Positions 22,051 to 41,803 of a stretch of DNA of 64,000 nucleotides are shown here, piece after piece; positions within the stretch are counted from its first letter, which is position 1; every line of letters begins with the position of its first letter. The notes beneath the pieces were generated by a model. That model had not been told where the DNA came from. It saw only the letters and a program-made list of their open reading frames with translations, and ran no database searches. Source of the DNA: Runella sp. SP2 (GTDB lineage: Bacteria; Bacteroidota; Bacteroidia; Cytophagales; Spirosomataceae); NCBI RefSeq assembly GCF_003711225.1, contig NZ_CP031030.1, forward strand, positions 1,054,001 to 1,118,000, given 5' to 3'. Both the position numbers and the translations under genes were made by a program.

Positions 22051-22250
22051 TTTGTGAGCAACCCTTTTGTTGGGATTAGAGAATCCCAACGCACGCGTGT
22101 GTGAGCGGGATTCTCAAATCCCGCGAAGGCGTAGTATGTGTGCAAGGGTTCTCAAACCCTTACTGTTTAAGAAATGCTTTTAAGTTTAACGGGTTTGTGA
22201 GCAACCCTTTTGTTGGGATTAGAGAATCCCAACGCACGCGAAGGCAGTGA
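22051..22250. repeat. Three-hairpin repeat, copies A (full) and B (truncated)
   Basis: Copy A (22051-22193) carries three hairpins: GTTGGGATT/AGAG/AATCCCAAC (22069-22090), GCGGGATT/CTCA/AATCCCGC (22105-22124) and AAGGGTT/CTCA/AACCCTT (about 22145-22162). The spacer GAAATGCTTTTAAGTTTAAC follows. Copy B (22194-22250) repeats the first hairpin and then decays. The region 21928-22361 otherwise contains no supported gene. Confidence 0.85.
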
Positions 22251-23063: not shown

Positions 23064-23066
23064 TAC

Positions 23067-23453
23067 GTTGGGATTTGAGAATCCCAACGCACGCGAGTGA
23101 GCGGGATTCTCAAATCCCGCGTCGTATGTGTTGAAGGGTTTTCAAACCCTTGTTTTTTTTTGAAGAAATGCTTTTTAAGTTTAACGGGGTTGTGAGCAAC
23201 CCTTTCGTTGGGATTTGAGAATCCCAACGCACGCGAGAGTGAAGCGGGATTCTCAAATCCCGCGTACGCGCAGTGAGTGTGGAAGGGTTCTCAAACCCTT
23301 GCTGTTTAAGAAACATTTTTAAGTTTAACGGGGTTGTGAGCAACCCTTTCGTTGGGATTTGAGAATCCCAACGCACACGAGAGTGAGCGGGATTCTCAAA
23401 TCCCGCGTATGCGTCGTATGTGTGGAAGGGTTCTCAAACCCTTGCTGTTTTAA
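23067..23453. repeat. Three-hairpin repeat, copies C, D and E in tandem
   Basis: C begins right after the DUF6090-like stop codon, D at about 23189 and E at about 23333, a period near 144 bases. Each has the stems GTTGGGATT/TGAG/AATCCCAAC, GCGGGATT/CTCA/AATCCCGC and AAGGGTT/(C or T)TCA/AACCCTT. D and E start with GTTGTGAGCAACCC, itself a small hairpin with a TGAG loop. Confidence 0.88.
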
Positions 23454-24132: not shown

Positions 24133-24235
24133 CCTTGGGATTCGCGAATCCTAACGCACGGGAGTGTGAGCGGGATTCTCAAATCCCGCGTATGCGTAGT
24201 GAGTGTGCAAGGGTTCTCAAACCCTTGCTGTTTAC
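24133..24235. repeat. Three-hairpin repeat, copy F
   Basis: Diverged first stem (TTGGGATTCGCGAATCC), then intact GCGGGATT/CTCA/AATCCCGC and AAGGGTT/CTCA/AACCCTT. It ends at the stop codon of the ALDH gene and lies between convergent genes. Confidence 0.8.
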
Positions 24236-37881: not shown

Positions 37882-39153
37882 CTAATGTTGAATTTCTCCA
37901 TTTTTGATGACCAATTTGACATTGCGAACGTCGTTTATCCGAACGTCAGGGCGTCCTTCAACCGCCACTAAATCAGCCAAAAAGCCTGTTTTGATTTGAC
38001 CTAGTTGTTCTTGGTGGAAAACGCGGGCGTTGACCGACGTCGCCGAACGCAGCACGTCGAGGGGTTTCATGCCATAATCGACCATCATTTCCATTTCACG
38101 GGCATTGTCTCCGTGAGTAAAAACACCTACGTCACCCCCGAAACAAATCGTAACTCCCGCATCTAGGGCTTGTTGGAATGTCTTTCGTTTGTTTTTGATT
38201 CTTTCAGGTTCGGGTTCAATGCCTTTTTTCCAACCTCGGTATTGCGTAATGGCATCGCCTGCGGCCAAGGTAGGGCAGAGTGCAACGCCCTTTTCTTTCA
38301 TCAGCGCAAAGATTTCGGGCGTACCTGCATCGCCGTGTTCGAGGGTTTCGCATCCACCCAAAATCGCCCTACGCATCCCTTCGACACTTCCCGCGTGGGC
38401 AATGACGGGGCGGCCGCTACTCTGTGCGGTTTCTACAATAAGTTTGATTTCGTCAATCAAAAAAGTAGGGCGGGCTTCACCCATCAAACCCCACCGATAA
38501 TCGGCATAAATCTTGATGACATCGGCTCCTTTTCCGATTTGATTTCGTACGGCGCGTATGAGCGGGTCGCGGCCGTCGGCTTCTTCTGCGCCTTGGGGTA
38601 CGGTTACATCGGTACTAAAACCTTTGGGTGCGTAACTTCCCGTGGCAATCAGGGCTTTGGTGGCAATAATCATACGTGGGCCTGGGATAATTCCTTGTTG
38701 AATGGCTTGTTTTAACCCAACATCGTCAAACTCAGCCCCTTCTGTGCCTAAGTCACGCACGGTCGTGAACCCTGCCATTAATGTTTTTTTTGCGTGAACA
38801 ACCGCTCGTGAAGTACGAAGAGAACGTGCTTCTTTGAGCACTTGGTCGTCCCAAGTTGTTTCGTTGTAAGGGTGTAAAAATAAGTGGGAGTGTCCTTCGA
38901 TAAAGCCAGGAAGTAACGTACATCCTTTCAACTCAATAATTTCAGCTTTGGAAGATTGGGGTAAGGCGGTTATTGATTTGGCATCGCCTACGGCTACTAT
39001 TTTATCGTTTACGACCAGTAAATGCCAATTTTCGCGAATTTCTTGCCCATCAAAAATGCGGTCGGGGCGTAGCAGGTACGATTTCTGAGCGACAACGCCA
39101 TGAGCCGCCAAAAGAACTATCCAAATGATTCGATTTAGTTGATGAAGTGACAT
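37882..39153 (-). CDS. Amidohydrolase family protein, exported
   Basis: 423 residues from the ATG at 39153, which gives the signal peptide MSLHQLNRIIWIVLLAAHGV. Metal-dependent hydrolase motifs: GCTLLPGFIEGHSHLF (His-x-His), GRPVIAHAGSVEGM, then LEHGDAG and ICFGGDVGVFTHGDNA (metal Asp). The pattern resembles prolidase-like and imidazolonepropionase-related amidohydrolases often exported by Bacteroidota. The substrate could be a dipeptide or a cyclic amide; it cannot be fixed. Transcribed away from the TetR operon. Confidence 0.85.
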   Translation of the reverse strand: MSLHQLNRIIWIVLLAAHGVVAQKSYLLRPDRIFDGQEIRENWHLLVVNDKIVAVGDAKSITALPQSSKAEIIELKGCTLLPGFIEGHSHLFLHPYNETTWDDQVLKEARSLRTSRAVVHAKKTLMAGFTTVRDLGTEGAEFDDVGLKQAIQQGIIPGPRMIIATKALIATGSYAPKGFSTDVTVPQGAEEADGRDPLIRAVRNQIGKGADVIKIYADYRWGLMGEARPTFLIDEIKLIVETAQSSGRPVIAHAGSVEGMRRAILGGCETLEHGDAGTPEIFALMKEKGVALCPTLAAGDAITQYRGWKKGIEPEPERIKNKRKTFQQALDAGVTICFGGDVGVFTHGDNAREMEMMVDYGMKPLDVLRSATSVNARVFHQEQLGQIKTGFLADLVAVEGRPDVRINDVRNVKLVIKNGEIQH

Positions 39154-39289
39154 GCTTGTTAATTTGTATCCTACAAAAATAGGCGTCAAACTGTATTGAT
39201 AACCTCAAAATGTACCCGAAAGTTTTAACATTAAGCTAAAAACAGAACGTTAGCCATGATTTTTAAGAAGGTAAAAGAAGGGTTCTGAA

Positions 39290-39317
39290 ATTTTACCAAA
39301 CGAACGTTTGGTAAAAT
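39290..39317. promoter_or_regulatory. TetR-type operator palindrome
   Basis: ATTTTACCAAACG / AA / CGTTTGGTAAAAT: two 13-base arms that mirror exactly around a 2-base centre. The core ACCAAACG..CGTTTGGT is of the TetR/AcrR operator kind. It lies in the 594-base gap before the TetR gene, and overlaps a TTTG -33 box (39307-39310), so binding would block transcription towards the TetR operon. The opposite-side amidohydrolase starts 137 bases away. Confidence 0.75.
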
Positions 39318-39338
39318 AGATTTGTTTTTTCACCTTTG
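39307..39338 (+). promoter_or_regulatory. Candidate promoter of the TetR operon
   Basis: TTTG at 39307-39310 and CACCTTTG at 39331-39338 (near the TAnnTTTG consensus, first base differs) are separated by 20 bases, within the Bacteroidota range. The transcript would start near 39345, just at the first repeat unit, giving a ~400-base leader. Confidence 0.5.
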
Positions 39339-39348
39339 TAAACCACGC

Positions 39349-39734
39349 GGTCAGACGATAGTCAGACCGAAAGTAGTTTGCAAGAAGTGGTGTATCTGTC
39401 TGACTGTCGTCTGACAGAGTCGTAGTCCCTCACCATAAGGTTAGACGATAGACAGACCGAAAGTAGTTTGCAAGAAGTGGTGTATCTGTCTGACTATCGT
39501 CTGACAGAGTCGTAGTCCCTCACCACACGGTCAGACAATAGTCAGACCGAAAGTAGTTTACAAGAAGTGGTGTATCTGTCTGACTATCGTCTGACAGAGT
39601 CGTAGTCCCTCACCATAAGGTCAGACGATAGTCAGACCGTAAGTAAGTTTGCAAGATGTATCTGTCTGACTATCGTCTGACAGCGTGTATTAAGAAGTAT
39701 CTGTCTGACTGTCGTCTGACAGAGTTGGTACCTA
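39349..39734. repeat. 90-bp tandem repeats with inverted GTCAGAC arms
   Basis: Three units with an exact 90-base period (39349-39438, 39439-39528, 39529-39618) and a fourth, rearranged unit to 39734. Each unit begins with GTCAGACGATAGTCAGAC and carries its reverse complement GTCTGACTATCGTCTGAC about 30 bases further on, so each can fold into an 18-bp stem. Between the arms is CGAAAGTAGTTTGCAAGAAG; after the right arm, AGAGTCGTAGTCCCTCACC. The last unit has an extra right arm. The array lies between the operator and the TetR start codon (39748). Confidence 0.9.
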
Positions 39735-39747
39735 TAAACAACCTCAA

Positions 39748-40308
39748 ATGCCCGTTCAGAAAGTCACCAAAGAAGAAGTTGTAAAACAAGCCCTGTTTTT
39801 GTTCAAAAAACAAGGGTATCATCGTACAAGTATGTCAGACCTTGCGGTGGCTTGTGGGCTGTTAAAAGGGAGCTTTTATCATTATTTCAGCAGCAAAGAT
39901 GCTTTGATGTTGGAAGTGCTTGAAACAGTCCATCAGTATTTTGCCACAAGGGTTTTTTCTATTGCCTACGACGAAACATTACCGCCCCGAGAACGCCTTG
40001 AAAAAATGATTGCGAAACAAATTTATGTTGCTGCAAGCACAGAAGGTGGTTGTTTGATGGGAAATATGGCGATAGAAACCGCCCTAATTACGCAGGAGTT
40101 CTTGCCAAAAATGCGGGAGTTTTTTGAAGAGTACCTACGCGCATTGGCACATTTATATAGTTCCAAATTTGAACCAACGATTGCCCAAAAGTTGGCTGAA
40201 CAGGCCATAGTTGAATACGAAGGAGCATGGATTATGGTGAAATTGACCCAAAATAACCAGTTTTTACACGATGTGCATCAACGCGCTCTTGAGCGATTTG
40301 AAGCTTAA
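39748..40308 (+). CDS. TetR/AcrR-family regulator
   Basis: 186 residues. The N-terminal helix-turn-helix is clear: ALFLFKKQGYHRTSMSDLAV, then ACGLLKGSFYHYFSSKDAL. The C-terminal helical ligand domain has ASTEGGCLMGNMAIE, recurrent in the TetR group that also carries YfcR/AcrR-like ligand pockets. It probably represses its own operon through the palindrome at 39290. The alpha/beta hydrolase and DinB genes follow within 36 and 21 bases, forming an operon. Confidence 0.9.
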   Translation: MPVQKVTKEEVVKQALFLFKKQGYHRTSMSDLAVACGLLKGSFYHYFSSKDALMLEVLETVHQYFATRVFSIAYDETLPPRERLEKMIAKQIYVAASTEGGCLMGNMAIETALITQEFLPKMREFFEEYLRALAHLYSSKFEPTIAQKLAEQAIVEYEGAWIMVKLTQNNQFLHDVHQRALERFEA

Positions 40309-40343
40309 AATTATTACTTACAACCTATACAGCTTTATTGAAA

Positions 40344-41249
40344 ATGAAAGAAATAGCACTCACGATACCGACAGCCGATGGCTTTGACTTATCGGCAGTT
40401 CTTTATGAATATCCAGGCCAGCCCAAAGGAGTGGTGCAGTTTAATATAGGCACTGGAATGCGGAAAGAGTTTTACGGAAACTTAGCCCGCTACCTTGCCG
40501 AACAAGGGTTTATCGTGTGTCTTTGGGAATATAGAGGTATGGGAAAATCGCGGCCAAAAGAGAAAGAGGCTTTTGCGGCGATCAGGATGCAAGATTGGGC
40601 CAAAGACATGAGCGAAGTCTTGATTTTTTTGGATCAGCGTTATCCCGATTGGCCCAAATTAATGATTGGCCATAGCATCGGAGGGCAATTGCTAGGCTTG
40701 ATGCCTAATCATGGTATTTTAAAAGGAGTGGTATTGCTAACGAGTTCGACGGGTACGTGGTGGCGTCAGACCTTTCCGTACCGACTGAAAGCCTATTTTT
40801 TCTTTAATATATTGTCGCCGCTGACTGCTCCTTTGGGGTACTTACCAGCAAAGCGAATGAAAATCATGGAAGACCTGCCCAAAGGCTTGATTATGGAATG
40901 GCGTATGTGGTGTAATTCGGAAAATTACCTCTTTGATTTTCTAGACAAAACCATTCCACAACATTATTATGATGAAGTAAGGCTACCCATCAAATCGTAC
41001 TGGACGACCGACGACCCTATTGCTAATGCGCATACCGTTCCTGCCTTACTACGCCATTTTCGGAATGCTGATATTATGAATGAAGCCCTTCGGCCCAAAG
41101 ACTACCGTGTAAAGCGGCTAGGGCACTTTGGCCTATTTTCGAGAAAATTCAAGGACACAATTTGGAAAAAAGTAGCCCAAGACCTCGAAGCGATGGCTTC
41201 CAAAAATCACCATTATAATAATCCAGCACTTCGGAAAATCAATTTGTAA
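40344..41249 (+). CDS. Alpha/beta hydrolase
   Basis: 301 residues from the ATG at 40344 (MKEIALTIPTADGFDLSAVL); a TTG two codons earlier is less likely. The nucleophile elbow is IGHSIGGQ, preceded by CLWEYRGMGKSR (oxyanion strand) and followed by SYWTTDDPIAN (Asp) and RLGHFGLF (His). No signal peptide, so cytoplasmic. The substrate is unknown; being controlled by a TetR regulator, it may act on a lipophilic or xenobiotic ester. Second gene of the TetR operon. Confidence 0.82.
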   Translation: MKEIALTIPTADGFDLSAVLYEYPGQPKGVVQFNIGTGMRKEFYGNLARYLAEQGFIVCLWEYRGMGKSRPKEKEAFAAIRMQDWAKDMSEVLIFLDQRYPDWPKLMIGHSIGGQLLGLMPNHGILKGVVLLTSSTGTWWRQTFPYRLKAYFFFNILSPLTAPLGYLPAKRMKIMEDLPKGLIMEWRMWCNSENYLFDFLDKTIPQHYYDEVRLPIKSYWTTDDPIANAHTVPALLRHFRNADIMNEALRPKDYRVKRLGHFGLFSRKFKDTIWKKVAQDLEAMASKNHHYNNPALRKINL

Positions 41250-41269: not shown

Positions 41270-41803
41270 ATGAACAAAGCAGAAGTAAAAGGACTGCTCC
41301 AAGAGCGAGTCCAAGGGGTTGTTGTGTTTTCAGAAAACCAAACATCCGAAATTTTTTATGCCAAACCCGCCGCTGATGTATGGTCGGTGGCTGAGAATGT
41401 TCAGCACCTGATTTTATCGGTGCAGCCATTGGCGCGTCTTTTTGGCGCACCTAAATCGTATTTTATTGAAAAATGGGGAAAAGCACCCCATTCGTCGAGA
41501 GCGTACGAACAGATGGTAGGGATTTACGACGCGGCGTTGGGTGGAGGAGGAGTAGCAACGGGAGCGTTTGTTCCATTGACTATGGCACCATCAAAGGAAC
41601 AACTGTTAGCGGAGTTTGTACAAATACACCAAATGTTGTTGCAATTGGTGGAAGCCAATTGGTCGGAAGAAGAGCTGGACGAGTACCCGATACCACACCC
41701 ACTTTTGGGGCTAATCACCGCCCGAGAAATGTTGTATTTTACCGCTTATCACCTCCTTCATCACCATCAAATTATGCAGAAAAGGGCAGCACAGGTAGCT
41801 TAA
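41270..41803 (+). CDS. DinB-family putative metal-dependent enzyme
   Basis: 177 residues, predicted four-helix bundle of the DinB/YfiT type. The three metal His are likely the one in WSVAENVQHLILSVQPL and two in YHLLHHHQIMQKR. The family includes thiol-dependent transferases (bacillithiol or mycothiol S-transferases) and uncharacterised stress proteins. Bacteroidota usually encode bacillithiol synthesis, which would fit, but this is inference. Third gene of the TetR operon, 20 bases after the hydrolase. Confidence 0.82.
   Translation: MNKAEVKGLLQERVQGVVVFSENQTSEIFYAKPAADVWSVAENVQHLILSVQPLARLFGAPKSYFIEKWGKAPHSSRAYEQMVGIYDAALGGGGVATGAFVPLTMAPSKEQLLAEFVQIHQMLLQLVEANWSEEELDEYPIPHPLLGLITAREMLYFTAYHLLHHHQIMQKRAAQVA

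What the first reader, a model, noticed from the sequence alone, without database searches (positions are those of the whole stretch)
39290..39747. 90-bp tandem hairpin array as the leader of a TetR-controlled operon
Seen: a perfect-arm operator (ACCAAACG AA CGTTTGGT) overlaps a -33 box, and from the expected transcript start (near 39345) three 90-bp units and a fourth rearranged one run almost to the TetR start codon. Every unit has 18-base arms that are inverted copies, built from GTCAGAC/GTCTGAC heptamers, so the leader RNA could form at least four long hairpins, or the DNA offers a row of heptamer binding sites. The spacer sequence is conserved too. Inference: this may be a second control layer (attenuation, RNA stability or a protein binding array) on top of the TetR repressor. 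I know of no described system with this layout.
Basis: partly seen in the sequence, partly recalled or inferred. Interest (0 to 1): 0.75.

Follow-up and report, generated by a model that had tools for sequence, protein, structure and literature searches.

The report
REP repeat cluster before tetR gene
The tandem hairpins in front of this regulator gene are a local cluster of a short palindromic repeat that is scattered through the Runella genome together with a matching transposase gene, so they are most likely an ordinary repeat insertion rather than a special control switch.

Summary
In detail: a perfect palindrome precedes three 90-bp tandem units and a rearranged fourth, the last core ending 27 nt before the tetR start codon. 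A dedicated second control layer is not supported. Each 'arm' is itself a small imperfect palindrome (GTCTGAC-TRYC-GTCTGAC) of a genome-wide REP family: 127 + 52 exact cores in this 7.6 Mb Runella genome; 173 of 192 copies examined lie outside long ORFs. A REP-associated tyrosine transposase (RAYT) gene elsewhere in the genome is flanked by inverted copies. The four Runella genomes with a RAYT at least 77% identical hold 127, 117, 57 and 21 cores of the first pattern; the other nine hold 0-4. At the orthologous tetR locus the palindrome is kept in 11 of 11 genomes, but REPs number 9, 2 and 3 in three close species and 0 in eight: a leader insertion, later expanded in tandem. REPs at matching places are usual between this genome and R. 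defluvii (22 of 28 clusters, one doubtful), so retention here is not special. An effect on tetR mRNA is possible but unshown. New member of a known kind.

The parts
39295..39312 (.). Perfect palindrome, likely TetR operator (perfect arms reach 39290-39317)
   Evidence: kept upstream of tetR in 11 of 11 orthologues
39307..39338 (+). Inferred Bacteroidota-type promoter: TTTG 39307-39310 and CACCTTTG 39331-39338 (consensus recalled, from no call)
   Evidence: sequence; inference
39349..39683 (+). Tandem array, period 90, 3.8 copies
39350..39367 (-). REP core 1
39398..39415 (+). REP core 2
39440..39457 (-). REP core 3 (2 mismatches)
39488..39505 (+). REP core 4
39530..39547 (-). REP core 5 (1 mismatch)
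39578..39595 (+). REP core 6
39620..39637 (-). REP core 7
39664..39681 (+). REP core 8
39703..39720 (+). REP core 9
39748..40308 (+). TetR-family regulator gene, 186 aa
40344..41249 (+). alpha/beta hydrolase gene downstream of tetR
41270..41803 (+). DinB-superfamily gene
37882..39153 (-). divergent amidohydrolase gene (start codon uncertain)

Best explanation
The array is a cluster of nine copies of a dispersed REP (repetitive extragenic palindrome) family. One REP is an 18-nt core, GTCTGAC-TRYC-GTCTGAC, that can fold on a single strand into a hairpin with a 4-nt loop and a T.T (other strand A.A) mismatch in the stem. Shown by calls: copy number, paired stem feet, inverted neighbours, a RAYT gene flanked by cores, core numbers that follow that RAYT within Runella, and tetR leaders without REPs in eight other Runella genomes. 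Inferred: the RAYT, a single-strand HUH/Y1 enzyme, spread the REPs; a pair landed between the tetR promoter and start codon in the ancestor of three close species; in the window's species a REP-spacer-REP unit was then multiplied in tandem (slippage, unequal recombination or RAYT action). The most likely role at this locus is none that was selected: a tolerated insertion in a 5' leader.
For: 127 exact cores of GTCTGACNNTCGTCTGAC and 52 of GTCTGACTNCCGTCTGAC in the own genome, 0 for the reversed control patterns. In 49 fetched blocks, 192 cores with up to 2 mismatches; the base pair at the stem foot, not used to collect them, forms in 94% of 138 non-redundant copies against 51% with right flanks shuffled, 0 of 2000 shuffles. 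Neighbours within 150 bp are inverted in 107 of 136 pairs. 54 clusters: 36 tandem, 14 convergent, 3 divergent, 1 unclassed; 173 of 192 copies outside ORFs of 90 aa or more. RAYT ORF G000:C1:610914-611516 between an inverted pair of cores; a profile of 20 homologues finds one PDB sequence up to E 0.1, E. coli TnpArep 4er8, E 6.3e-6, and all 20 match NF047646 at E<=0.001. Core numbers follow this RAYT in 13 Runella genomes. tetR leader: 9, 2, 3 and, in eight genomes, 0 REPs; palindrome-to-ATG distance 435, 126, 164 and 51-54 bp. The spacer is found only in this array.
Against: No GT[AG]G tag near the hairpin foot (GTAG 4, GTGG 4 of 192; controls 6 and 3), so this is not a canonical GTAG REP. The own RAYT is below the curated cut-offs of PF01797 (20.9 of 23 bits) and NF047646 (35.8 of 80 bits). 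In G086 the two cores nearest the RAYT are in the same orientation. In a second genus (g36), G097 holds 29 cores with a RAYT only 46% identical and no cores beside it, and G105 and G113 hold 7 each with no RAYT match at E<=1e-5. The divergent leader position is rare for the family, 3 of 53 classed clusters. Copies were collected by the core, so core and mismatch conservation is partly a product of the search.
Confidence: 0.85

Rival explanations
1. The REP cluster, whatever its origin, has been co-opted as an RNA element of the tetR leader (stability, attenuation or translation): a second control layer over TetR autoregulation.
For: It lies between palindrome/promoter and ATG, folds strongly as RNA (z -8.55) and is present in three species. 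A divergent/leader place is unusual for the family (3 of 53).
Against: Number and spacing differ between close species (9, 2, 3) and eight orthologues have none. Retention is ordinary: 22 of 28 R. defluvii clusters (one doubtful) lie where this genome also has REPs. A strong fold is expected of any REP cluster.
Confidence: 0.1
2. The heptamers are a row of double-strand binding sites for a DNA-binding protein (TetR or another regulator).
For: GTCTGAC heptamers 11 bp apart, about one helical turn.
Against: About 179 exact cores sit at many loci; they do not resemble the conserved operator; stem-foot pairing shows that the palindrome is kept.
Confidence: 0.03
3. A plain minisatellite made by local slippage, with no link to mobile DNA.
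For: The 90-bp tandem and its spacer are local.
Against: The palindromes are genome-wide and flank a RAYT gene. Slippage may still explain the last amplification step.
Confidence: 0.02

Closest known systems
RAYT / TnpA-REP subclass 2.6 (PMC6006769; passages and sections 13 and 25 seen)
   Same: Mostly Bacteroidota; NHxH and YIH[QN]NP motifs (own RAYT NHFH, YIHQNP); genes flanked by 'atypical secondary structures' with copies elsewhere in the genome.
   Different: Their figures are not held, so their structures could not be compared; by my reading the third motif is FRQ, not WQ; their class table gives NH[LIV]H, here NHFH; Runella has 0 occurrences in the main text.
REP/BIME and REPIN elements (PMC2817692, passages; PMC3116915, abstract and section 12)
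   Same: Short imperfect palindromes, above 100 copies, extragenic, inverted pairs, tandem clusters, RAYT gene flanked by REPs.
   Different: No GTAG-type tag; the stem foot varies between copies while staying paired.
E. coli TnpA-REP and its REPs (PMC8266576, passages; PDB 4er8)
   Same: A conserved irregularity in the stem; a distant sequence match of the enzyme.
   Different: E. coli REPs are longer and GTAG-tagged with a two-base bulge; here an 18-nt core, 4-nt loop and a single mismatch.

Membership tests
REP/BIME elements (broad sense) | short palindrome in high copy number | tested here: met
   179 exact cores; three array copies folded as hairpins
REP/BIME elements (broad sense) | extragenic, mainly in tandem or convergent gene gaps | tested here: met
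   173 of 192 copies outside long ORFs; 50 of 53 classed clusters tandem or convergent (naive ORF calls)
REP/BIME elements (broad sense) | neighbours in alternating orientation | tested here: met
   107 of 136 neighbour pairs inverted
GTAG-tagged REPs | unpaired GT[AG]G at the hairpin foot | tested here: not met
   within 8 nt 5' of the core on either strand: GTAG 4, GTGG 4, GGAG 7 of 192; controls 6, 3, 6; CTAG 12 against 4 is the only excess
RAYT | HUH motif and tyrosine motif Y...NP | tested here: met
   N53 H54 H56 Y132 N136 P137 invariant in the 20 homologues aligned; among all 30 located, my pattern missed the first motif in L211 and the second in L219
RAYT | gene flanked by two inverted REPs | tested here: met
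   nearest cores inverted in L192 (own), L193 and L195; in L194 (G086) cores lie on both sides but the nearest two are in the same orientation
RAYT | score over the curated model cut-off | tested here: not met
   35.8 of 80 bits NF047646 (E 6.6e-9), 20.9 of 23 bits PF01797 (E 4.1e-4); a threshold of the models, not a biological property
RAYT subclass 2.6 | YIH[QN]NP motif and atypical flanking structures copied in the genome | tested here: met
RAYT subclass 2.6 | falls in the subclass in a tree with its reference sequences | not tested
   no tree was made
RAYT | cleaves its REP as single-strand DNA | not testable with these tools
   needs biochemistry
TetR operator | palindrome conserved at the promoter of tetR orthologues | tested here: met
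   11 of 11 orthologues, in G075 with one end base changed
TetR operator | bound by the TetR protein | not testable with these tools
   needs EMSA

The most novel reading that the evidence does not exclude
A RAYT/REP system without a foot tag, in which an 18-nt hairpin core with a T.T mismatch is the recognition signal, kept letter for letter in several Cytophagales lineages; and the tetR leader array works as a copy-number rheostat, REP gain and loss between strains tuning the level of a repressor.
Probability: 0.08. Interest if true: 0.5.

Novelty: new member of a known kind. Interest (0 to 1): 0.22.

Why it matters
It keeps an ordinary repeat cluster from being taken for a new regulatory layer. 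It also gives a countable RAYT/REP pair of a Bacteroidota type whose flanking structures the paper I saw calls only 'atypical' (PMC6006769, sections 13 and 25), with an untagged core and close species that differ in copy number: a usable case for asking how untagged REPs are recognised and spread.

Tried and rejected
Rfam scan of 38700-40800 gave only one hit up to E 1, a miRNA family at E 0.64, far under its gathering score. A PF01797 search of the own genome found one RAYT-like gene, L031, whose REPs are of another family; the REP-flanked RAYT was found by reading the DNA around the cores. One search lists two more weak RAYT relatives in the own genome (near C1:369,500 and C1:1,252,000), not examined. 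An AlphaFold model of the R. defluvii RAYT on a two-row alignment was unusable (mean pLDDT 41.9), so no fold search was run. phmmer of the single RAYT against the PDB gave only weak hits (best E 0.48, a transposase, 2f4f). Binding-site row and plain minisatellite were considered and rejected (see rivals).

In-place flips of REP cores as a general rule were tested and are rare; pairs with at least 11 of 14 flank bases alike on both sides: own vs R. defluvii 33 same, 2 flipped; own vs R. limosa 0 and 1; R. defluvii vs R. limosa 3 and 2. These are pairs, not loci: the flips fall at two loci only, and the last two are one locus held under two ids.

Literature: searches. 'Runella' with 'REP sequences': 0 papers; 'Runella' with palindromic, repeat, transposase: 0. 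The library holds open-licence papers only. PMC12306157 (RepRanger): one passage seen, Runella 0 occurrences.

Full report
What was seen. The coordinates and anatomy hold. A perfect palindrome (39295-39312) is followed by an array of period 90 (39349-39683, 3.8 copies) with repeat spacings 90, 90, 86 and 39, and tetR starts at 39748. The 18-base arms are exact inverted copies only in the fourth unit; by my comparison they match 17, 16 and 17 of 18 in units 1-3. Each arm is itself an imperfect palindrome; the three of nine that I folded form a hairpin with a 4-nt loop and one mismatch.

The palindromes are a genome-wide family. GTCTGACNNTCGTCTGAC occurs 127 times in the 7.6 Mb own genome and GTCTGACTNCCGTCTGAC 52 times; the reversed control patterns occur 0 times. 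The listing was cut at 100 places, so late copies of the first pattern were fetched only where one search also pointed. In 49 blocks (144,667 bases) I found 192 cores with at most two mismatches. In 138 non-redundant copies the pair at the stem foot forms in 94%, against 51% with shuffled right flanks (0 of 2000 shuffles reach it); pairing is also in excess at depths 2-4 (57 vs 28%, 49 vs 29%, 35 vs 25%) and not beyond. The foot was not used to collect the copies. The centre mismatch is T.T in 190 of 192, but those bases belong to the search core.

Where they lie. Of 54 clusters, 36 lie between genes of one direction, 14 between convergent genes (2 of these inside an ORF by my naive calls), 3 between divergent genes and 1 could not be classed; 19 of 192 copies fall inside ORFs of 90 aa or more. 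REPs of other bacteria are reported to lie mainly between unidirectional and convergent ORFs (PMC3733652, passages). The tetR locus is one of the 3 divergent ones, so its place in a 5' leader is unusual for the family. Neighbours within 150 bp are inverted in 107 of 136 pairs.

The transposase. Between cores at 610893 and 611619 of the own contig lies a 201-aa ORF with NHFH and YIHQNP motifs. It matches NF047646 (REP-associated tyrosine transposase) at E 6.6e-9 and PF01797 at E 4.1e-4, both under the curated cut-offs. Of 30 homologues located I aligned 20; the ten left out are L197, L200, L204, L207, L208, L211, L212, L215, L217 and L219 (some fragments, some near duplicates, L211 and L219 lacking one motif by my pattern). 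The profile of the 20 finds one PDB sequence up to E 0.1, 4er8, E. coli TnpArep, and all 20 match NF047646. Cores also lie on both sides of the orthologues in G103, G086 and G134 (L193-L195); the nearest two are inverted in the own genome, G103 and G134, but in the same orientation in G086. Of the 26 more distant loci (L196-L221), at least 13 show a palindrome or core-like repeat on both sides of the gene in the listing, mostly of other sequence, for example GTCCGAC-TATC-GTCTGAC in L209, L210 and L212; others, such as L197, L198, L203 and L204, show no such pair.

REPs follow this RAYT inside the genus. In 13 Runella genomes the counts of the first pattern are 127, 117, 57 and 21 in the four with a RAYT 77-100% identical, and 4, 2, 4, 0, 1, 4, 0, 0, 4 in the other nine (one-sided rank probability 1/715, not corrected for kinship, three of the four being close relatives). 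Against a simple pairing: of 150 genomes of the family, 16 hold a core, in two genera. In the second genus, g36, G097 holds 29 cores with a RAYT 46% identical that has none beside it, and G105 and G113 hold 7 each without a RAYT match at E<=1e-5; these are incomplete assemblies. A named scan found 120 stretches with the exact 18-mer before it stopped at its limit; of the 80 listed, 56 are Runella, 6 Arcicella, 10 unnamed Cytophagales MAG, 5 Marivirga, 1 Thermoflexibacter, 1 Cyclobacteriaceae and 1 Oscillospiraceae. Single hits in remote taxa can be chance in a collection of 257 billion bases.

History of the locus. TetR orthologues were found in 11 of 13 Runella genomes. All 11 keep the palindrome before the gene (in G075 one end base differs, which is why one search lists 10). 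The own genome has 9 REPs, G103 2, G086 3 and the other eight 0; palindrome-to-ATG is 435, 126, 164 and 51-54 bp. G103 is probably R. defluvii (same copy spacing, and the same tetR-leader flanks in L117 and L223); G086 is probably R. limosa (inference from genome and contig layout only). The three share both ends of the insertion, so a pair probably arrived in their ancestor, and the 90-bp tandem is seen only in the window's species. The spacer occurs three times in the own genome, all here; a 90-bp query finds elsewhere only single palindromes or pairs at 72-78% identity. Retention is ordinary: of 28 R. defluvii clusters from the 27 listed loci, 22 have own-genome REPs at the matching place, with varying numbers (L099 among them is doubtful: one flank 66% identical), 4 had no match in the fetched blocks and 2 one flank only; for R. 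limosa 10 of 14, then 2 and 1, and 1 too short to test. Because only REP-bearing own blocks were at hand, sites empty in the own genome fall under 'no match'.

How it works. Best reading: RAYT-linked REPs inserted between promoter and start codon and were then multiplied locally; the leader tolerates them. Spread by the RAYT is inferred from known systems (PMC2817692 and PMC8266576, passages; PMC3116915, abstract and section 12) and not shown here. REPs can affect mRNA decay and translation in E. coli (recalled), so some effect on tetR is possible, but no result here points to selection for it.

What is known. Subclass 2.6 of the TnpA-REP superfamily is mostly Bacteroidota, with YIH[QN]NP and 'atypical secondary structures' copied elsewhere in the genome (PMC6006769, passages and sections 13 and 25). 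This system fits that description. It fails the GTAG tag test of canonical REPs. I therefore file it as a new member of a known kind, with that difference stated.

Noticed in passing
window 22105-22161, 23066-23443, 24170-24228; L031: A second REP-like family: hairpins with a TTCTCAAA core whose arms differ between copies but stay complementary. The same core surrounds another RAYT-like ORF (NF047646, 96.6 bits) at G000:C1:3780849.
   Followed up: partly
G000:C1:1732141 and 1732222 vs L142 and L074; tetR leader L223 vs L224: At two loci REP cores lie reversed in place in a related species while the flanking arms are kept, as if the hairpin had flipped.
   Followed up: partly
L079, L089, L123, L146 (Marivirga), L143 (Thermoflexibacter), L082, L119 (Arcicella): The exact 18-nt core also occurs in other Cytophagales; in L079 the flanks extend the palindrome.
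   Followed up: partly
window 39295-39312: Palindrome ACCAAACG-N2-CGTTTGGT-like, kept before tetR in 11 of 11 Runella orthologues and, in its strict form, at one place in the own genome: a one-target autoregulator is likely.
   Followed up: yes
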